Shown one piece after another: positions 27,659 through 47,152 of a stretch of 64,000 nucleotides of DNA. The position numbers and the translations under genes are program-made. The DNA lies in assembly GCF_022539665.2 (NCBI RefSeq), contig NC_081333.1, forward strand, positions 2,852,001 through 2,916,000, given 5' to 3'. The notes beneath the pieces were generated by a model. The model saw only the letters and a program-made list of their open reading frames with translations, had not been told where the DNA came from and did not search any database. Source of the DNA: Daphnia carinata (taxonomy: Eukaryota > Arthropoda > Branchiopoda > Diplostraca > Daphniidae). How positions within the stretch are numbered: position 1 is the stretch's first letter; each line of letters begins with the position of its first letter.

Positions 27659-30600
27659 TCATGGGGACGTGACGCCCGACTCCTGTTTGATTTGCTTCAC
27701 GCCGGGATTCTCGGAAAACTCGCTGGCAGCTGGTGCGACAGAATGTTGGTTTGAATCCGGTTCCGTTTTAATTCGCTTCACTTCGCATTGGTTGGCGGCC
27801 ATTTCGCTAGTGGCGGCTGGCGCTGCAGATTCTTTATTATCTTCCAGTTTAATTCGTTTCACTTCAGGTTCGTTTTCGGCCGTTTCGCCACCAGCGACTG
27901 GCGCAGGCTGTTTACTACCGCCCGCTTCGTTGAGTGTCGTTTGAAATTCGGAACTCATGTCCATCTTGGTAATCTCTCTCAGGGCCATGGTGGCATACGC
28001 CGAGGCCGGCAGGTTGAATTCGAGTATCAATCCGAGGTAAGCGCCATCTAATTTTGATTTTTTTTTTTTTTTTAAATTCGTGTTTTTCCCCACCAGAAAA
28101 AAAAAAAAAAAGAATGGAGAAAATTGTCAGTCAGTTTCATGTTTCACGAGTGACATGCGAAAGCAAACACCATTAACAGTGCACAAAGGGCCGGAAGGGA
28201 AGATCAGCCATCGCAACCTTTACATCTCATCGATTCACCCGAACATTCTCGACGGAGAAACCCCCGGCCGTCTCTACCCTGGGTGTCTTTACGTCAATAA
28301 AGCGAGCGCAAAAGTGGATGCGTATGACGTTGACTACTCACGAGAAAATGAAGCATTTTACACACTAATGAAGGCCCCCAGACCAAAGAGGCCAAAAGTC
28401 AATGGGATTTGCTAGAATGAATGTCGACAATCTACTCTCTCTCTGCTTCTCTGTCGCCGTTGGACCCAAATTCTCCGTACGAGTCAACTTTCCATCTCTA
28501 CACCACGACATTCATAACGGACAAACTTCTCTTGTCGTCCATTCCAATATCCGACCGGCACCAGCCGTCAACAATCGGGCAAGCAGACAAGACATAATAT
28601 AGCGGCGGCTGCCGACAAAACTCACTACTACTCCCCCCCCCTCCCTCTCTTTCCATTCCTCATTGGCTGCCGACGTTGATTTCCTCTCTTTGCGCTCCAA
28701 CAGCAACGCAGACATTCACAAAGGGCGACGGTGGTAACAACAACAAACAGGGTAAGGCAGTACAGCACAACAAACGCCATTCATAATGCCTCGGCGCAAT
28801 CATCCACGTACACACACACATACACACAAAAGGATTCTTTTTCCCTTCAGCGAAGAAGTGGGTCGGCTCTAAAAAGCCACAGCCTCGCAAAAGTGAAGAG
28901 CAAAACATCGTATTGATTTTTCACGAGTGTCAAAAAAAAAAACGTTCAATTCGGGAGTCGATGGGAGCCCGAAAAAAAGATGGCGGGAGCAAAGTTTGTC
29001 TACCCATCAGGGTATAAGGAGTACATAAATATTGTCCAAAATGTAAGAACCACTTTGAATAGCAAAAGGATAAGGAGGAACCCCGGCGAACACTTGCGAT
29101 CAATTCATCCCCTCTCGCATCTTCTTTTGCATTTTTTATGACTTTCGGCTCCTGTTACTAACTACTAACTTTTTCTCTGTCTAAATCGGACTGATGCGTC
29201 TAACAAGAAAAAAGAAAATAATTTAACATGACGAACGTGGGGGCTCGCACTTTCCAAAAAAAAAAAGGGGGGGGGGCGGGGGCGTTAAGCTGGAGCTTCT
29301 TCAACCACAACGGGATTACTAACTCGGTAGGGAATCTATTCAACCCACTAAAAAAAAATTTCATGCAGACGCCTAAATCAGCTGAAGAAAGACGGGGACG
29401 GATAATAATAAAAAAGGGATTAAATAACCAGTGCAGAAGCTTGAAGATATAAAATGTACGCATCGAAAGAGCGCAGCGTGAAAAAAAAACTAATAAACAC
29501 TGAGCTCGGTCGATCCATCAACTTGACATAAAAAATCAACTTTGAACCAGCATAAGTCTTGAGTTTAAAAAAAAAAAAATTTTACGTTCCTCAAGATCGC
29601 AATATTCGATAACAATAGTTCCTAACCTTTCTTTTCGCGTTTCTTGTTTTCAAGAAAAAAAAAATTTCCAAGATTGATGGGGCCCGTCCCTACGTCGTAC
29701 GTCAAAATAAGAAGGAAAAGAAAAGGAATGCAGAAAAAATCCCGTTGAGCCACGGGGATGATACCTTCCACAACAGCAGGAGGGAGCTGGGTATTTTCTA
29801 GTCGATCCCAGTCAGAAGGGATCAGGTTCAACGTGGGATTATCGTAACGTACGAATTTCCATTTCACGTCCGACGGCTTTGACATCACCAGTCGATACGC
29901 TCCGCCAAGATTGTACGTTCTGTCGAAAAATGGAAGGGCGGAAAAAAAATGTTATGTTTAATATAAAAGAAAAAAATGCAACATGGGAAGAAGGGCATTA
30001 CTTTGTGCTCTGCTTGAAATCCATCTCAGACAAGCCATCCGCTTGAAGAAGTTCCGTATACCATTTGGCAACTTCATTGGCCGGGTAAGTTATGTCGAAA
30101 CCGGGAAGTGGAAGAAGAACATCGTTGATGGTGTAGTTGTGAATGTTGTTCTCGTCGATGAAAATGACTTTTCGCTGATTGCGCTGGGCTTTTTTATTCG
30201 ACTTTTCACCATCAACATCTTTTTCATTTGACTGATCAGTTTCGGCTTCCACTTGATCCTCGTTTTCCATTTCTATTTCTGGGTCGACATCGTCGTTGCT
30301 ACTGCCCGGTGCGTAGACTAGATCGCCTACAATTGGCTTTGGACCAAAGGTTGAAAGACGCTTGGAAACGACTGTATTCCAGAGGAAACTCTGATAGGCG
30401 TGAATGTAAGTAAGCCGCATGTTGCGAGGAATCTAATAAACAAAAAAAAAAAAAAAAAATTAATGGAGGGTACATGGTCTTCCATGTTGTATGGGGACTT
30501 ACGGTATTTAAGGCACCAAGGAGATCTTTGCCATGTTTCTTCAGATTTAACAAGAGTTGAGCCTCGATTGTATGGAGGCTCTTTTTTATCTTCCCGAAAG

Positions 30601-32057
30601 CTTTATGGGCATCTTTTGATGATTTGTATTCTACACGAGCAAGTGTAAGGTCGTAATCGCGCTGATACTTGCCATTAATCTCAGGAGGCTCTAAAATCAG
30701 ATTAATAGCCTACAAAACATTAATTAATAAACGTTCTTATAAAGCAGCTGAGACGTTCTAGTTACTTCTTGCCATCTCCCAAGAATCAACTGCTTTCCGA
30801 TGAAATGCGTCGGCACATGTCGCGTGCCGAAGCGCTGAGATCCATAATAATTGATGAAACCAACTTCTTTTAGCGATTCAAGATTTGCCAAAATTTGACT
30901 CTCGTCGCCAAGTACGTTTCTTAGTACAATGACGAAACGATTACCCTACAGAGATTTCGGAATTACGATGCGTCGTGGCTTAAATGTATTATATCTCACC
31001 TTCAAATTTCCCAATTGTAAAGGCTTCTCTGTGTAAGTAAAGTTTCCAACAGCAATCTTTGCATTGGACCTTACGCTATTGAGAAGCTTAAGAGGTTCCA
31101 CAGATTTTACAGTCACCAGTTGGCTTGTAATAGCTCTTTTGTCTTTAGTTCCTGCAGTCATGAAACATGCTGGCTTCATCCTTTCATTTTAAAAAATAGT
31201 TTCAAAAAATTTTAATATAAAAAAAGTTAAATAATGAAAGGAGGATGAATACTTAATTATTCTCGCAACTGTGTTCACTGCTTCCATTGTGCTCTGGTTT
31301 TCCTTGTATAACACAAACTGAGTATACATGCATCCCATACGTCGTTTATCGTTTTGACGCCTTTCCTGTCTTCCTTCCATTTTAAATATCTTCATCACTG
31401 TTCTTCCATCAACAGGTGCTGAATTGCTGGTGACATTTTCATCTTCATATTTAGTCCTCACTATTTTGTGAATATTTTGTCTTTCTTCTTTGCTTTTTTC
31501 TGTGACATCTATTTCAACTTGCTTTGGGTCTCCATTCTTCACCATGTCTTCAATGTTCTTCCATTGCTCTGGTGTTAAAACGTTTTGTTGCTCTGCCAAC
31601 GCAACAGTTGGGGGTGGTGCAACATATTCAACAATAGACTGATCAGTTAAATGAATAACTGTGCCATTCATGTCAATCTCATGTACCTTTTTGTCAGCAT
31701 AATGCAAAGTTTAATTTTTCAAATACACATTACATTATTTCATTTTTATCTTACCTGGAAATCTGAGTACCGTTGTTTGAGAATAGCTGAAAAGCCTGCA
31801 CCTTTCGAGACATACTCTGAGATGCCAACATCACTTTCCTTCCTCTCGATTTTAACATATTCTTGCTTGAAATTGGTGGGACGTTTCTCTGGAGTGCATT
31901 TTGGGCTATTCTGTTGCTTTGTGGCAGGTTTCATGCTTAGTTCTCTTTCTTGTTGCTTTTTCAAATTGTATTTGGCCATTGCTCCTAAAACATCAATCTT
32001 CTTTTTCAACGTCTGGCCCTTAGCTTCACTGACACTCTCGCAGTCATCGACTTCCAT
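27659..32057 (-). CDS. PUS7: Pseudouridylate synthase 7 homologue, copy A, with SUMO-site-repeat tail
   Basis: Minus-strand exons: 32057-31755, 31686-31253, 31180-31000, 30945-30766, 30709-30503, 30432-30002, 29919-29765, 28047-27659; 759 aa. It follows human PUS7 along its length: DVGISEYVSKGAGFSAIL, the TruD catalytic block GTKDKRA (Asp259 by my count), GNRFVIVLRNV, INYYGSQRFGT, YIHAYQSFLWN, LPLPGFDITYPA and the final EFNLPASAYATMALREITKM. Family role: TruD-type pseudouridine synthase acting on tRNA and mRNA, mainly nuclear. A Glu/Asp-rich insert lies in exon 6. Human PUS7 stops shortly after the conserved block, but here about 95 residues follow. They contain three related units bearing RIKLED, RIKTEP and QIKQES, each a psi-K-x-E sumoylation consensus. 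A 1.7 kb intron (28048-29764) separates the last exon. Nothing suggests inactivation. Confidence 0.94.
28048..29764. other. Last intron of PUS7 copy A (1.7 kb)
   Basis: Unusually long for this gene family here. Rich in homopolymers; no nested gene seen. Phase 1, as in the other two array members. Confidence 0.6.
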
Positions 32058-32973: not shown

Positions 32974-35900
32974 TTAATCCTCAAGATCGGAGGTGAGATC
33001 AACTACGATGATAGGCTCCTTTTTAGGTTCTTTGAATGGCGTCGTTGTAACGACTGAATGATCTTGGAATATAACTGGCTCGACCTTAATCCGCTTTTTC
33101 TGAGGTTCTTCAAGTGACTTGCCGAAATTTAATGTAGGCGTTTCACTAATGTTTTGCTCTTCTTTGATTTTCTTCGTATGGAAACGCTTCTGCCTATCAG
33201 TAGTTTCTTTTTCAGATGTTTGGCATTTGTTTTCCTCCGAGATTCGCATTGGCTGTGGTTCTTTACTGGCACCCCGCTCTCTTTTAATTATTTTCGTTTC
33301 AAATTTTTCGGAAAATACCGCTGCTACTGCTAGAAATCGCTCTGTGCCCAAGACTGGCTCTAACCAAATTTTACTCACATTAGGCTCTTCATATTTATAT
33401 TTGTCTCCTGATATAGGTTGTTTGCTGATGCCCGGTTCTTCCTTGACTGTAATCATTTGCGATCCTTCGACTGAAACAGCGGCTGCTGGTGTGAATTTCT
33501 CACACTTGCCTGGTTCAAATTTGATAGTTCTTGGTATTGGCTCTTCAGGCACCATTCTAGCAGATATGGCCGAATTTTGGCTTGAGGTCGACTGTACTCC
33601 ATTTACTTCAAACTCAGGTCCTTTGCAGGATTTTTTTGTTGCCAATGCATGTTGTTTGCTCACATCAGGCTCTTTGTTCATTTGCTTCATCTCAACGGGT
33701 GTTTTTGAACACTCTTGGCTTTTACATGATTCAAACTGGATTTGACTACTCTCACCTTCCCTCGACGGATGGCTCTCTTGGTTTTGATTATTTTCCCTGG
33801 TTCTTTTAAAGTTCGCATGAAATTCTGTAGTCATGTCCATCTTGGTGATCTCTCTGATGACCATGCTTGCAAATGCGAAGGCCGAGAGACTGAATTCGAA
33901 CACAAGTCCACGATATTTACTACCTGAACAAGAACGTTAAATAGGGAAATTTTAACAGCTATGATTTTTCTACCTTGTATGGCAGGGTGAAGCTGCTTCT
34001 TATTTTTCAATCGGTCCCTATCGGACGGAATGAGAGTAGCATTGGGATCATCGTAATGCAAGAATTTCCACTTCAGATCGAATGGTTTTGAAACCATGTA
34101 TCGATACATGCCACTAAGATTAAACATCCTATAAACAATGAAAACTATTATAAGATGAGATGATAAATATAATGAAGAAGTAAATACATAAAGCTTCGAC
34201 TGAAATCCGCGTCCGTCAACCCATCCGCCTGTAAAAGTTCTTGGTACCAAAAGGCAATTTGATTGGCCGGATAAACGGTGTGGTATCCAGGTAGCGGTAA
34301 AACAACATCATAGACTGTGTACTTATGAATGTTGTTTTCGTCAATGAACATAACTTTCCGGTGGTTGCCTTGCTCATTCGTTTCACAATCATCCCTATCG
34401 CCTACCATTTCAATCAATGGATTTTTCTCCAGTTCTAAGTTTTGGTTTTCTTGGTCGGTGTTTTTATTATTATTTGTTGCGTATACTAAATCGCCTATTA
34501 TTGGGTGCAAACCAAAGGTGGCAAGACGCTTAGAGGCGATGGTATTCCATATAAAACATTGATAAGCGCGCATATACGTAACTCGAATGTTACGAGATAT
34601 CTAACAAGATAAGAATAATCAAAAGAACGCAGATGGTTTTGAACATCGTAGGGAGACTTACAGTATTCAACGCAGCTACATCTTCCCCGCATTTCGTTAA
34701 GTTTAACAGGAGTTTTGCCTCAATTGTTTGGAAGTTCTGTGTTATTTTAGCAAAAGCTTTTTGGGCGTCATTTGACGATTTGTACTCGACAAGAGCCCTT
34801 GTAACGTCGGAAACATATCGCAAATTGCCATTTAAATCTCCAGGATCTAAAATCAAATTTATGGCCTAAACGAGATAACAAGTAAGAACAAATTGTTCGA
34901 GGTTTAACAATGCAATTGCGAATCAAGCTTTTGTCATTACCTCTTTCCATTTCCCTAAAAGCAGTTGCTTTCCAATGATATGCGTCGGTATATGTCGCGT
35001 TCCAAAGCGTTGAGGTTCGTAGTAATTGACGAAACCCATTTCTTTCAGTGAATTAAGGTTTGCAGAGATTTTACACTCATCACCAATGACGTTTCTTAAT
35101 GCAATGGTGAAACGGTTGCCCTGTAGAATAATATAACCAGTTATAATGCCTTTAAACTAAAATCTGTACTTTGTTTCACCCTCAGGCTTCCTGAACGAAG
35201 AGGATTTTCCGTGCAGGAAAAGTTGCCAACTGAAATGCTTGCATTATCTTTCATACTTTTGAACAGCAAATGCGGTTCCACGTTTTTTACGGTTACCAGC
35301 TGACTTGTAATAGCTTTTTTATCTTTGGTTCCAGCTGTCGTAAAACATCCGGATTCCATCCTTTTATTTCAAAGGAAAAATAAATAAACTTTAAAAAAAA
35401 TGAAATAGGGGTAGGTAAATAATTACTTCAGTTTTTGGGCAATTGTGTTCAGTGCCTCCATTGTAGTATGGTTTTCCTTATACATGACGAATTGAGTATA
35501 AGTTGATACCTTTCTTTGTTGTCGTCCTTGCCGATTATTTTTTCTTTTTTTGAAAATCTTCAGGATATTTTTGCCATCAACAGAGACTGTAGTGTTGACA
35601 ACATCATCATATTTCATCTTTAAAATTTTCTGCATCTTCTTTTTTTCTGCTTTACTCTTTCCAGTGACATCTATTTCAACGACCTCTGGTTTCCCACTTT
35701 CTACCATATCTTCAATAGTGTTCCACTTTTCAGCTTCAAAAACAGCAAGTTGCTCCTCCTCTGTTGGATAACGTTTGACAACAAAACTTGAACCAGGAGA
35801 GTGCTTGGTTGTTAAATGAACAATGGATCTATCCAAAGAGATTTCATGTATCTATATTAAGCAAAACTTCAATATCAACTATAAATTATAAACATATGAC

Positions 35901-36478
35901 ATTATTTAAAGCATTTTTTTTTACCTGGGTGTCAAAGAAACGGTGTCCCACAACAGCTGAAAAGCCTTGGCATTGTGAAACAAATTCAGTTATGCCAACT
36001 TCACAATCACGTTTCAAACAATTTCCGCTTTCTTGTGGTTTTCCTGCCAAATCCTTTAAATAAGAATAGTTTGCAATTGTAGTTTTTTTGTAGAAAACAT
36101 GTTAGTTCTTGCCTGTTGATTTTCTTTAAAATCAATTCTCTTAATATTGTCTGGTCCTTTAATTCCAATTGTCCTTTTTTCCCCTTGTTTAGTCGAACCA
36201 AACAGCACATTGTTTTTGGGAATGAACGGTCTGTTTACCATATTAAGCCTTTTGACTGCATGTTGAGATCTTGTTGCCTTGATGGATTCTTGCGATAATC
36301 TTCTCTCTAAATCTCTAATCTCTCGTTTCTTTTTCTCTTCTGATGTGTCCATCATTTTTTGTTTCTCTTCTTGTTCCTTTTTCAACTTGTATTTTGCCAA
36401 TGCTTCCAGAACATTTACTGGTTTTTTTTTTGGCACATCCTTCATTTCAGACAATTTCATTCTCTGCTTAGCTTCCAT
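32974..36478 (-). CDS. PUS7 paralogue, copy B, with long SUMO-motif/SIM tail
   Basis: Minus-strand exons: 36478-36113, 36053-35925, 35851-35427, 35360-35180, 35120-34941, 34865-34662, 34600-34188, 34128-33974, 33923-32974; 1000 aa. Intron positions match copy A from the VGI..FSA block onward. An additional intron, with a GC donor, lies upstream of that block. Conserved: EVGITEFVSQCQGFSAVV, catalytic GTKDKKA (Asp320), GNRFTIALRNV, VNYYEPQRFGT, LPLPGYHTVYPA and FEFSLSAFAFASMVIREITK. The N-terminal 120 residues are Lys/Glu-rich and probably coiled coil (VLEALAKYKLKKEQEEK). After about residue 715 there is a 285-residue tail with psi-K-x-E motifs (IKFEPG, VKEEPG, IKRERG, IKEEQN, IKVEPV) and a C-terminal EPIIVVDLTSDLED, a classic SUMO-interacting motif. 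The start at 36478 aligns with copy A's start. The enzyme looks intact, though some core residues differ (ASMVI for ATMAL). Confidence 0.88.
36111..36112 (-). other. GC 5' splice site in PUS7 copy B intron 1
   Basis: Minus-strand CAG|GCAAGA; the intron is 36112-36054 (59 nt), ending TTTAAAG. Phase 0 on both sides. The only nearby GT gives a frame that meets a stop. Confidence 0.6.
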
Positions 36479-37840: not shown

Positions 37841-39227
37841 CTATCTGGACGCGCTCAGCTTCAATCGCTTATTTTGGAATTTCAGTGGTGACTCATCGCC
37901 CGACGTGATTTCACTAACGATTTCTTCCAACTCGAAACCTTTCTTTGGGGGTTCCTCCGACGAACTTTTCCGTTGTGTTGGATGTTCGCAGATTTTAGTC
38001 CCACCATCAACCATGGTATTCACGTCCATTTTCACGATCTCTCGGTTGGCCACTATGATGCACGACGAAGGCGGTATGTTGAATTCGACAACAAGATCGA
38101 AATTACCATCTAAACGAAATTGCAATAAAAAAAAAAGACATTTCAACATGGAAAATTTGCCTTTAAACTGCGCAATGAGTTAAAGAAGGGCGAGAAGTAT
38201 AAAGGAAGAGCAAACGTTAGAAATTTCAGTAAATGACAAACCTGCTTTTGCATTTGACAGTGTTGAAGCAGTGGATGCAATGCCGATTCCAACGTCTGGG
38301 ACTTGTTTGCTAACTGCAAATAAAGAACACGTAAAATACCGACGCGTTTTTCTATTATTATGGAGCGGTTTTCCTTAGACTTCTACTGTCCCATGTAGAG
38401 ACGAATTCACCGATTTTATGGCGGGAAATGTTTACCTATGCTATGGACCGCATTAGTTGAATCTGCTGTTGGTACACTCAAAAAAGTATCTGCCAACTTT
38501 TGTTTGTTTTTTCCCTTGCCCAATCGCTTTGCTTCTGTAAAATTAGTCGAAATGTCATGATTTTGACCAAAACAAGAAATTAACTTTGCATGATACCGTA
38601 TGTTTTACAGAATCTTGTGGTTGGGATGGAATCCATATATAACTGAAGTGCTTTGAGCGTTGAGGGTTTTACTTTATCTAAATCCATTACCACTTCTTCT
38701 GGAACCGGTCCGTCTACTGGCTCCAGTGACCGAAAAATGTGGACAACCCGCGCAAGTTTGTCACCTAAAAATAGCCCATTCAGAATTTTATTATAAGGGC
38801 ACATCAGTAATAAATAGCGTATTCAGACTTGGAAGCAGTTGGATGTCAATACTAAGTTGCCTTTTTTCTACAGGTGACATTGGATTCGTGTCGTCCTCGT
38901 ATTTCATGTCGCAAACAACTGCAGGAAAACGAAGAGATTTTCTCTTGATCGCTATTGGAGACGGTGAAGGCGTCGATTTGAACGTCGAAGAGTTCTGCTT
39001 CTTTGGTTGACTAGTGGTACTAACATTCACCTAGTAAGAAAGAGGGGGATAAAAACAATGGCATAAAGTCAAATAATAAGCACTACCGGAGACAGTTTTA
39101 TGAAATAGAGAATATATCCACTATAACATTGTCTCTGTACCTGGCAATCTGAGTACAATCTCTTCAAAGCAGTTGAAAATCCATTTCCTTTTTGGGTATA
39201 TTCTTGTATCCCAACTTGAGGCTCCAT
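37841..39227 (-). CDS. Chimeric protein: PUS7 N-terminal segment + BET extra-terminal (ET) domain + PUS7 C-terminal segment
   Basis: Minus-strand exons: 39227-39141, 39030-38829, 38764-38597, 38534-38436, 38313-38242, 38109-37841; 298 aa. Residues 1-29 (MEPQVGIQEYTQKGNGFSTA) match the PUS7 block EVGITEF...FSA and end at the same phase-0 intron after YSD-x-Q. Residues 78-145 form an ET domain as in BRD2/3/4: NPMSPVEKRQLSIDIQLLPS, then DKLARVVHIFRSLEP, then KPSTLKALQLYMDSI. A Lys-rich linker follows. The last exon starts at the same phase-1 junction as PUS7 and encodes DGNFDLVVEFNIPPSS and ANREIVKMDVN, then a tail with EEIVSEITSGDESP. The catalytic TruD exons, including GTKDKRA, are absent. Family knowledge: ET domains bind short basic-hydrophobic peptides of chromatin regulators such as NSD3, JMJD6 and CHD4. 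Function is unknown; a chromatin-adaptor role is inferred. In-frame TAA directly precedes the ATG, supporting the start, though an upstream exon (39437-39325) cannot be excluded. Confidence 0.82.
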
Positions 39228-41337: not shown

Positions 41338-41860
41338 TTAATCATGAATGGTGTCGAATTTGTGAGCTTCGTTGTATCTCCGGTGCCACTCTGCGTTGTA
41401 CTCGTTGATATTTTCTCCGCGGTGGGCGGCATTCTTTCCGCTGATAATCATTAGGAAAGAACCAAGGATGGCAATTCCGGCGATGGCCAGATTAACTTTG
41501 ATCCTGAAGTGACTACGAGCGTTTTCAATCATGGCGTTCCTGTTTGGTAAGTAAACAGTCGATTAAAGGTCTATAACCTTAACCTACTTTGAGCTTAATG
41601 CCCTTACGAGACGAGGGTAGGGACATCGGCGGTCTTCTTGAACTGGCCGCTCCATACGAGCAATCGCTGCTCAAAAGGGCTAACTTTGTGGGCAATTTGA
41701 CCTGTACAAAATCAAGCTAATGAGCATTTCCGCTCCAGTTCAACACCTCCATAAAATAAAACTTACCGAGTTCGGAGACGGGCGAGATGTATCTGCTAGA
41801 GCCAGCGGCTGATGACATGAGGCGCTTGGCAACAATGCTCTTTGTTAGATGAGATGCCAT
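41338..41860 (-). CDS. FAM162/UPF0389 family mitochondrial membrane protein, copy A
   Basis: Minus-strand exons: 41860-41767, 41701-41608, 41539-41338; 129 aa. Seen: a basic, Ser-rich N terminus typical of a mitochondrial targeting sequence (MASHLTKSIVAKRLMSSAAG), the family block SPFEQRLLVWSGQFKKTADVP, a single hydrophobic helix (VNLAIAGIAILGSFLMII) and the SGKNAAHRGENI...WHRRYNE tail. It matches FAM162A and Drosophila CG9231-type proteins. Human FAM162A is reported as a hypoxia-induced protein linked to mitochondrial apoptosis; whether that holds here is unknown. A close paralogue lies 5 kb upstream with identical intron phases. Confidence 0.9.
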
Positions 41861-46622: not shown

Positions 46623-47152
46623 TTAATGATCGTATTTGTAGGTTTCGTTGTATTTTCGATGCCATTCAGCGTTGTAGTCGTTGATGTTTTCGCCGCGATG
46701 AGCTGCGTTCTTTCCGCTGATTACCATGGCGAACGAGCCGAGAACCGCCAGACCGGCGATGACAAGATTAACACGGATCCGGTAATGATTGCGAGCCTTT
46801 TCCATTGTATCCCGCCTATCCAAAGCAAAATAATAATAATTTTTAAAAAATATTGTATCAGTCTGACAATGAATATTCAAATTCTAGTGCACTCACGAGA
46901 CGAGAGAGGGAACGTCGGTTATCTTTTTGAATTGACCGCTCCATACGAGCAATCGCTGTTCGAATGGGCTGACCTTATGACTAATTTGACCTAGTAAAAT
47001 ATATAATACTTTAGCACATTATGCAATAGCAGATTGTTGATGTAGAAGAACTTACTTAGGGCTGAGACCGGAGAAATGTATCTGGTAGTTTGGCCGGATG
47101 TCGACATCAAACGTTTAGCAATGACGTTCTTAACAATGTTGTTAGTTGCCAT
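46623..47152 (-). CDS. FAM162/UPF0389 family mitochondrial membrane protein, copy B
   Basis: Minus-strand exons: 47152-47056, 46990-46897, 46815-46623; 127 aa. Same layout as copy A: a presequence-like N terminus (MATNNIVKNVIAKRLMSTSG), SPFEQRLLVWSGQFKKITDV, a membrane helix (VNLVIAGLAVLGSFAMVI) and SGKNAAHRGENINDYNAEWH. Intron positions and phases are identical to copy A, so this is a tandem duplicate. The two differ mostly at the N terminus, around the helix and at the last few residues (YKYDH against HKFDTIHD). Both look intact. Confidence 0.9.

What the first reader, a model, noticed from the sequence alone, without database searches (positions are those of the whole stretch)
37841..39227. 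PUS7-ET chimera: pseudouridine synthase exons replaced by a BET extra-terminal domain
The third member of the PUS7 array keeps the PUS7 VGI..FSA segment up to the shared phase-0 intron and the PUS7 last exon from the shared phase-1 intron. The exons between, including the TruD catalytic block, are gone. In their place are exons encoding a convincing ET domain (PMSPVEKRQLSIDIQLLP, KLARVVHIFRSLEP, KPSTLKALQLYMDSI). I know of no described protein joining PUS7 pieces to an ET domain without a bromodomain. The frame is intact over six exons and 298 codons, which argues for a functional gene. The ET acidic strand reads EEVVMD where BRD4 has a more acidic EIEID-type strand, so partner choice may differ.
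Basis: partly seen in the sequence, partly recalled or inferred. Interest (0 to 1): 0.93.

Follow-up and report, generated by a model that had tools for sequence, protein, structure and literature searches.

The report
Gutted pseudouridine synthase carrying ET domain
In water fleas a copy of an RNA-modifying enzyme gene took up the protein-docking (ET) domain of a chromatin regulator, and in this species almost all of the enzyme has since been lost, leaving a small protein built around the docking domain.

Summary
Six minus-strand exons (39227-37841) give an intact 298-aa frame identical to a database protein, LOC130693297 of Daphnia carinata. It has a BRD-type ET domain (PF17035, E=4.7e-14, residues 79-141), no TruD and no bromodomain. 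It starts with PUS7 exon 1 and ends with the PUS7 last exon. The four middle exons correspond to BET-gene exons: two of three internal introns sit at identical alignment columns and all phases match.

Database proteins of D. pulicaria, D. galeata and D. magna carry TruD AND ET, with the ET just before the PUS7 last-exon sequence. ET exons were therefore inserted into a PUS7 copy. The catalytic Asp is Glu in the two models that still have that stretch. Enzyme exons were then lost; D. carinata and D. sinensis keep only the ET and the two PUS7 ends. Fusion ETs form one clade, and so do fusion TruDs.

All six fusion ETs keep the peptide groove but have Val for BRD4 E653. Best reading: a bromodomain-free ET adaptor or competitor with altered partner choice. 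Origin is well supported; function is inferred. No transcript or binding data were seen.

The parts
39141..39227 (-). Exon 1 of the chimera: MEPQVGIQEYTQKGNGFSTALKRLYSDCQ, PUS7 exon-1 piece, ends in the phase-0 intron shared with PUS7-A
   Evidence: model; 0 of 5000 shuffles score as high against PUS7-A 74-101
38829..39030 (-). Exon 2: BET-derived, starts at the same phase-0 acceptor as the BET gene exon at C1:91503; contains the first half of the ET domain
38597..38764 (-). Exon 3: BET-derived, second half of the ET domain (DKLARVVHIFRSLEP...EEVVMD...KPSTLKALQLYMDS)
   Evidence: (30 bits, over Pfam cut-off)
38436..38534 (-). Exon 4: BET-derived post-ET exon; its 5' junction lies in the same alignment column and phase as in the BET gene
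38242..38313 (-). Exon 5: probably derived from the Ser-rich BET exon; same phases, junction 7 alignment columns off, weak sequence similarity
37841..38109 (-). Exon 6: PUS7 last exon (DGNFDLVVEFNIPPSSCIIVANREIVKMD...) entered by the phase-1 intron shared with PUS7-A, plus a divergent C-tail and stop
   Evidence: weak PDB hit to PUS7, E=0.36
32974..36478 (-). PUS7-B, next member of the array: 9 exons in my model, TruD motif AGTKDKKA kept, long C-tail
27659..32057 (-). PUS7-A, intact PUS7, 8 exons in my model; agrees by eye with P0023, 'pseudouridylate synthase 7 homolog [Daphnia carinata]'

Best explanation
The locus is the D. carinata member of a PUS7-ET fusion family seen so far only in Daphnia. 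(1) A tandem PUS7 copy gained a run of four BET-gene exons, with their introns, just upstream of its phase-1 last exon, so the ET domain sat between the TruD body and its last strand. [Architecture and intron correspondence shown; insertion mechanism inferred.] (2) The copy lost its catalytic aspartate (Glu in D. pulicaria P0021 and D. galeata P0020) and became a probable pseudoenzyme. [Alignment shown; inactivity inferred.] (3) In the D. magna/carinata/sinensis branch enzyme exons were lost: the region of exons 2-3 in the D. magna model, all enzyme exons in D. carinata and D. sinensis. [Shown as sequence; order by parsimony.] (4) What remains is one confidently folded ET domain in an otherwise mostly disordered protein. 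It most likely docks onto short hydrophobic/basic motifs of transcription and chromatin factors without reading acetyl-lysine, acting as a free adaptor or a competitor of the Daphnia BET protein. The constant E653-to-Val and F656-to-Leu changes and the weakened basic tail predict altered partner choice and weaker DNA contact. [Inferred from published BRD4 and Bdf1 ET work.]
For: ET: PF17035 E=4.7e-14; best PDB sequence hits BRD2/BRD4/BRD3 ET; model matches 2n3k, 2ncz, Taf14 ET. BET exon origin: exon entry at the same phase-0 acceptor, 2 of 3 internal junctions at the same alignment column, all phases 1, exit phase 1 matching the PUS7 last intron. Intermediates: P0021 (D. pulicaria), P0003 and P0020 (D. 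galeata), P0022 (D. magna) carry PF01142 and PF17035. Single origin: fusion ETs one clade 99/98, fusion TruDs one clade 100/98. Catalytic Asp to Glu in 2 of 2 fusion models that hold the stretch. Model of P0021: ET (519-582) and much of the TruD region confident, with the last strand (659-668) after the ET. Conservation D. carinata/D. sinensis: ET core 56 of 64 identical, PUS7 last-exon core 17 of 29, C-tail 38 of 57. Neighbouring tags in D. sinensis: PUS7-A is GHT06_011967 and the chimera GHT06_011968. Groove mapping against published residues (PMC5701133 and PMC13021927, passages read). ET alone can act in yeast: passage of PMC13373324.
Against: No transcript, protein or binding data were available; P0001 is one database entry with one member sequence. 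ET dS against the BET gene is saturated, so dN/dS could not be estimated properly. The other Daphnia proteins are database gene models (D. magna is 'isoform X2'; both D. galeata models lack the PUS7 start), so the exact order of exon losses may be partly annotation. D. sinensis lacks 7 residues of exon 1, so the PUS7 ends need not be functional. The ET changes could also mean drift and loss of binding. The ET tree printed a long-branch warning.
Confidence: 0.62

Rival explanations
1. Direct replacement: PUS7 exons were swapped for BET exons in one recombination between phase-0 and phase-1 introns, and the longer fusions of other Daphnia arose separately.
For: Intron phases fit a one-step swap; no TruD match lies in the D. 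carinata chimera's span.
Against: D. magna has the same Ctenodaphnia-type ET next to a TruD half; fusion ETs form one clade (99/98) and fusion TruDs form one clade (100/98); E653V, I637F and F656L are shared by 6 of 6 fusions.
Confidence: 0.05
2. A decaying pseudogene: an expressed or silent relic that still happens to have an open frame.
For: Fast evolution outside the ET (C-tail 13 of 44 aligned residues identical to D. magna), changed groove residues, a weak donor at 38828, a 7-residue gap in D. sinensis exon 1.
Against: 298 codons open over six exons in D. carinata and open database models in D. sinensis and D. magna; ET core the best-kept of six segments between D. carinata and D. sinensis (56 of 64) and ahead of four of the five others against D. 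magna (50 of 64).
Confidence: 0.15
3. The fusion is mainly an RNA-bound pseudoenzyme: PUS7-like RNA binding tethers ET partners to RNA, and the D. carinata form is a derived, weakened version.
For: In D. pulicaria much of the TruD region is still predicted with confidence alongside the ET and the protein keeps both Pfam domains.
Against: D. carinata and D. sinensis lost the whole TruD domain yet kept the ET.
Confidence: 0.15
4. Two genes: the ET exons belong to a separate gene lying within or beside a PUS7 fragment.
For: No RNA evidence seen here.
Against: Phases join without a break; the D. carinata database model is identical to the joined exons and the D. sinensis model aligns end to end; four fusion models in three other Daphnia species join PUS7 sequence to the ET.
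Confidence: 0.03

Closest known systems
BET proteins (BRD2/3/4, Drosophila fs(1)h, yeast Bdf1), ET domain PF17035
   Same: ET fold, hydrophobic groove positions 622, 630, 633, 634 unchanged, four of five acidic wall positions still acidic; exon structure matches the D. carinata BET gene
   Different: No bromodomain; E653 to Val, I637 to Phe, I652 to Val/Ala, I654 to Met/Val/Leu, F656 to Leu in 6 of 6 fusions; C-terminal basic run reduced
PUS7 / TruD pseudouridine synthases (PF01142)
   Same: Exon 1 and last exon with their intron phases; array neighbour of PUS7-A and PUS7-B
   Different: No TruD domain, no catalytic motif in D. carinata
Unnamed Daphnia PUS7-ET fusions: LOC124312900 (D. pulicaria), LOC116931670 (D. 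magna), A0A8J2RS29 and A0A8J2S3E1 (D. galeata), GHT06_011968 (D. sinensis)
   Same: Same ET clade, same order ET - PUS7 last exon; D. sinensis has the same TruD-less form
   Different: The three non-sinensis species still carry TruD sequence, complete or partial
Taf14 (ET without bromodomain; YEATS plus ET, domain make-up recalled)
   Different: 21-22% identity in the structural alignment; no PUS7 sequence; its ET belongs to yeast chromatin complexes (recalled)
Human RPUSD3 and TRUB2, pseudouridine synthase relatives thought inactive
   Same: RPUSD3 has lost the catalytic Asp, as the fusions have (PMC12716993, passages read)
   Different: They belong to the RluA and TruB families, and no foreign domain is mentioned in the passages read

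Membership tests
ET domain (PF17035) | Pfam gathering score | tested here: met
   52.7 bits against 24.5, residues 79-141
ET domain (PF17035) | three-helix ET fold with the loop strand | tested here: met
ET domain (PF17035) | acidic residues D650, E651, E653, D655, E657 of BRD4 | tested here: inconclusive
   4 of 5 positions acidic in D. carinata (E, E, V, D, D); E653 is Val
ET domain (PF17035) | binding of hydrophobic/basic peptide motifs | not testable with these tools
   needs a binding assay
BET protein family | bromodomain(s) upstream of the ET | tested here: not met
   no PF00439 in the protein; 33 bromodomain matches listed in the genome scan, none inside the window at C3:2852001-2916000
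PUS7 / TruD enzymes | TruD domain PF01142 | tested here: not met
   absent from the protein; no match in the chimera's span in the genome scan
PUS7 / TruD enzymes | catalytic aspartate in the AGTKD motif | tested here: not met
   the stretch is absent from the D. carinata protein; Glu at this position in P0020 and P0021
Daphnia PUS7-ET fusion family (grouping made here) | ET falls in the fusion clade | tested here: met
   6 fusion rows form one side of a branch, 99/98, 100% of 200 bootstrap trees, 24-row tree; long-branch warning printed
Daphnia PUS7-ET fusion family (grouping made here) | PUS7 last exon after the ET block | tested here: met
Daphnia PUS7-ET fusion family (grouping made here) | TruD sequence upstream of the ET block | tested here: not met
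   present in 4 of 6 fusion proteins, absent in D. carinata and D. sinensis
Exon shuffling from the BET gene | intron positions and phases shared with the donor | tested here: met
   entry phase 0; junction columns 67 and 124 identical; third column 171 against 164; all phases 1. BET exon ends are my own reading of splice sites

The most novel reading that the evidence does not exclude
A bromodomain-free, ET-only regulator born in steps: an ET cassette inserted into a PUS7 copy, the enzyme turned pseudoenzyme, and the enzyme was then shed in one lineage while the ET was kept. It would act as a natural competitor or adaptor for BET partners, with a rewired peptide preference set by E653V and the changed groove.
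Probability: 0.4. Interest if true: 0.75.

Novelty: new variant of a known kind. Interest (0 to 1): 0.66.

Why it matters
Living species preserve stages of a domain-fusion gene: intact enzyme paralogues, enzyme plus ET with the catalytic residue replaced, part enzyme plus ET, and ET with only the enzyme's first and last exons. That makes the order of events in exon shuffling readable. It also offers a natural test of what an ET domain can do without bromodomains, a current question: a 2026 yeast study reports that the ET contributes more than the bromodomains to transcription and that the ET expressed alone partly rescues loss of the BET proteins (PMC13373324, passages read).

Tried and rejected
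dN/dS: the ET core of the chimera against the BET gene has saturated synonymous change (pS 0.75), so no ratio is given; coding DNA of the other Daphnia was not available. Two-gene and one-step-swap models were considered and set low (see rivals). A first ET tree included P0044, a PUS protein caught by my motif and not an ET; in that tree the fusions were not one group (2 changes), and it was dropped. Rows left out of the final ET tree: P0044, near-copies P0007, P0008, P0009, P0046, P0047, P0004 (retained intron), and P0014 and P0018 (motif not matched). The TruD tree used 17 rows; P0031, P0035-P0038 and P0044 were left out. In that tree the PUS7-B group was not one clade (2 changes; 23% of bootstrap trees), so orthology of D. 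carinata PUS7-B and the D. pulicaria/D. pulex proteins is unsure. The third genome ET hit (C2:5634619, 29 bits) lies in a long Lys/Ser-rich frame (554 aa of it in L003) that looks like an ENL/AF9-type end (recalled), not a BET. A possible origin of the D. magna and D. galeata pre-ET linkers from the end of the upstream BET exon was looked at by eye only and is unproven. A first PUS7-B model lacked one intron and had 50 stops; the model ends exon 7 six bases short of the GT donor seen, a slip without effect on frame. Paper searches whose listed rows show nothing on this fusion: 15 of 62 listed; 0 papers; 2; 0; 8 of 20 listed; 1. The Daphnia gene-family paper PMC12102780 has 0 occurrences of pseudouridine, bromodomain, chimeric or fusion in its main text. 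No structure search was run on the P0021 model.

Full report
WHAT IS THERE. The window lies at C3:2852001-2916000 of a 108-Mb assembly held as G000. The second hit of that search (2 proteins with E<=0.001 of 515 candidates) is D. sinensis GHT06_011968, 287 aa, 71% identical over 99% of the query.

DOMAINS. Pfam gives one family at E<=1: PF17035 (BET), residues 79-141, 52.7 bits, cut-off 24.5. Against the PDB, 9 distinct sequences match at E<=1: eight are BRD2, BRD3 or BRD4, and the ninth, not significant on its own (E=0.36), is PUS7 (5kkp) at residues 215-240, inside the PUS7-derived last exon. The AlphaFold2 model has one confident domain: ten-residue blocks 81-140 average pLDDT 79-95, while 185 of 298 residues are under 50. 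Its structural matches are BRD4 ET (one Foldseek match under E 0.001), then BRD2/BRD3 and Taf14 ET.

PUS7 ENDS. Exon 1 aligns to PUS7-A residues 74-101, and the last exon to residues 631-700; 0 of 5000 shuffles score as high for each. The intron after exon 1 is phase 0 and the intron before the last exon is phase 1, in the chimera and in my PUS7-A model. A whole-genome TruD scan (6 matches, 6 candidates) finds PUS7-A, PUS7-B and one further copy on contig C2; none lies in the chimera's span. A whole-genome bromodomain scan lists 33 matches (35 candidates), none in the window. By the tool's note such scans are lower bounds.

WHERE THE MIDDLE CAME FROM. A genome scan with the chimera protein finds, outside its own exons, the BET gene on C1 (E=2.2e-7, 45%, and 1.0e-4, 40%), and, weakly, the first and last exons of PUS7-A (E=0.04 and 0.12). 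Four BET exons (196, 171, 120, 153 bases, splice sites read by me) stand against four chimera exons (202, 168, 99, 72 bases). The entry is phase 0 in both and every later junction is phase 1. In the protein alignment two of three internal junctions fall in the same column (67 and 124) and the third is 7 columns off in a gapped region. Keeping introns in place points to DNA-level exon transfer, not a retrocopy (inference).

RELATIVES CHANGE THE STORY. A profile search (19 proteins with E<=10 of 5683 candidates) brought P0003 of D. galeata, with both PF17035 and PF01142. A third search, limited to the 7997 candidates sharing most words, returned 30 proteins. Among them the four with both domains are P0003 and P0020 (D. 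galeata), P0021 (D. pulicaria LOC124312900 isoform X1, 751 aa) and P0022 (D. magna LOC116931670 isoform X2, 585 aa). In each, TruD sequence is followed by the ET block and then by the PUS7 last-exon sequence. In the P0021 model the ET and much of the TruD region are confident, and the strand of the last exon (659-668; block 661-670 averages pLDDT 94) follows the ET. So the ET block was most likely inserted before the last exon of a PUS7 copy that still had its enzyme body.

STEPWISE LOSS. PUS7-A has AGTKDKRA; against PUS7 5kkp the D. pulicaria fusion has Glu at the Asp position, and D. galeata P0020 also has Glu there; P0003 and P0022 lack this stretch. A strictly conserved catalytic Asp is needed in pseudouridine synthases (PMC10631681, passages read), so inactivity is likely but untested here. 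The D. magna model joins exon 1 directly to the exon starting near GNRF, without the catalytic stretch; D. carinata and D. sinensis join exon 1 directly to the first BET exon. The corresponding introns in the D. carinata genes are phase 0, so the frame survives each loss. Whether D. magna lacks or only skips exons 2-3 is open, as P0022 is isoform X2.

SINGLE ORIGIN AND AGE. In a 24-row ET tree the six fusions are one side of a branch (99/98; 100% of 200 bootstrap trees). In a 17-row TruD tree the four TruD-bearing fusions are one clade (100/98). The ET tree printed a long-branch warning, and an earlier tree that wrongly held a non-ET row did not give one group. Inside the fusion clade D. magna, D. 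carinata and D. sinensis group against D. pulicaria and D. galeata, in line with the subgenera (Ctenodaphnia membership as listed in PMC12102780). The fusion therefore probably predates the split of Ctenodaphnia and Daphnia s. str., whose date is disputed: 35.8 million years estimated in PMC12102780, which itself used a 130-150 million year calibration for D. pulex - D. magna (passages read), and fossils of about 145 million years in PMC3123605 (abstract read).

CONSTRAINT. D. carinata against D. sinensis: ET core 56 of 64 identical, exon 1 19 of 22 (7 gapped), pre-ET 36 of 48, post-ET 44 of 67, last-exon core 17 of 29, C-tail 38 of 57. Against D. magna: exon 1 23 of 29, ET core 50 of 64, pre-ET 27 of 49, post-ET 47 of 67, last-exon core 22 of 29, C-tail 13 of 44. 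The ET is among the best kept parts, but a formal dN/dS could not be had.

HOW IT MAY WORK. Published BRD4 ET work names the groove I622, L630, V633, V634, I652, I654, F656 and the acidic wall D650, E651, E653, D655, E657 (PMC5701133 and PMC13021927, passages read). All six fusions keep I622, L630, V633, V634. All six have Phe for I637, Leu for F656, Val for E653 and Val/Ala for I652, and keep acid at the other four wall positions; the basic run 676-680 is reduced. E653K lowered ASXL1 binding in BRD4, and in yeast Bdf1 loss of three or more of four conserved acidic residues was lethal. The fusion ET should therefore still dock hydrophobic peptides but with altered choice. In yeast the ET alone with a nuclear signal partly rescued BET loss, which makes a bromodomain-free ET adaptor plausible. 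Adaptor and competitor cannot be told apart here.

VERDICT. It is one member of an older, unnamed Daphnia fusion family, and its TruD-less form most likely came from later loss, not from replacement. I found no paper on it in the searches named under Tried and rejected.

Noticed in passing
window 33923-32974 (- strand), last exon of PUS7-B: PUS7-B ends in a tail of nearly 300 residues rich in hydrophobic-K-x-E stretches (IKFE, VKEE, IKRE, IKEE, IKVE) and a final IIVVDLTSDLED that look like SUMO sites and a SUMO-interacting motif (patterns recalled). The D. pulicaria protein P0027 ends similarly (IIYIDIISDQED).
   Followed up: partly
L026 (C2:2639500-2647500, - strand): A fourth PUS7-like copy on another contig, with a short exon 1 like the chimera's (MNAQEVGIIQYVSHRKGFSA...), has AGDLPKRA where PUS7-A has AGTKDKRA: the catalytic Asp is gone though the modelled frame is open.
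   Followed up: partly
P0027 and P0028 (D. pulicaria, D. pulex): These PUS7-like proteins read AEHNIGRSKS / AEHKIGRS at the catalytic motif, so loss of the Asp seems repeated among Daphnia PUS7 copies.
   Followed up: no
window 36112-36054: The first intron of PUS7-B appears to be a GC-AG intron.
   Followed up: no
window 41338-41562 and 46623-46883 (- strand): Two similar short frames (NHYRIRVNLVIAGLAVLGSF.../SHFRIKVNLAIAGIAILGSF...) suggest a tandem-duplicated small gene, FAM162-like by recall.
   Followed up: no
P0003 and P0020 (D. galeata): Two closely similar fusion entries in D. galeata; they may be a recent duplicate or two haplotypes, and both models lack the PUS7 start.
   Followed up: no
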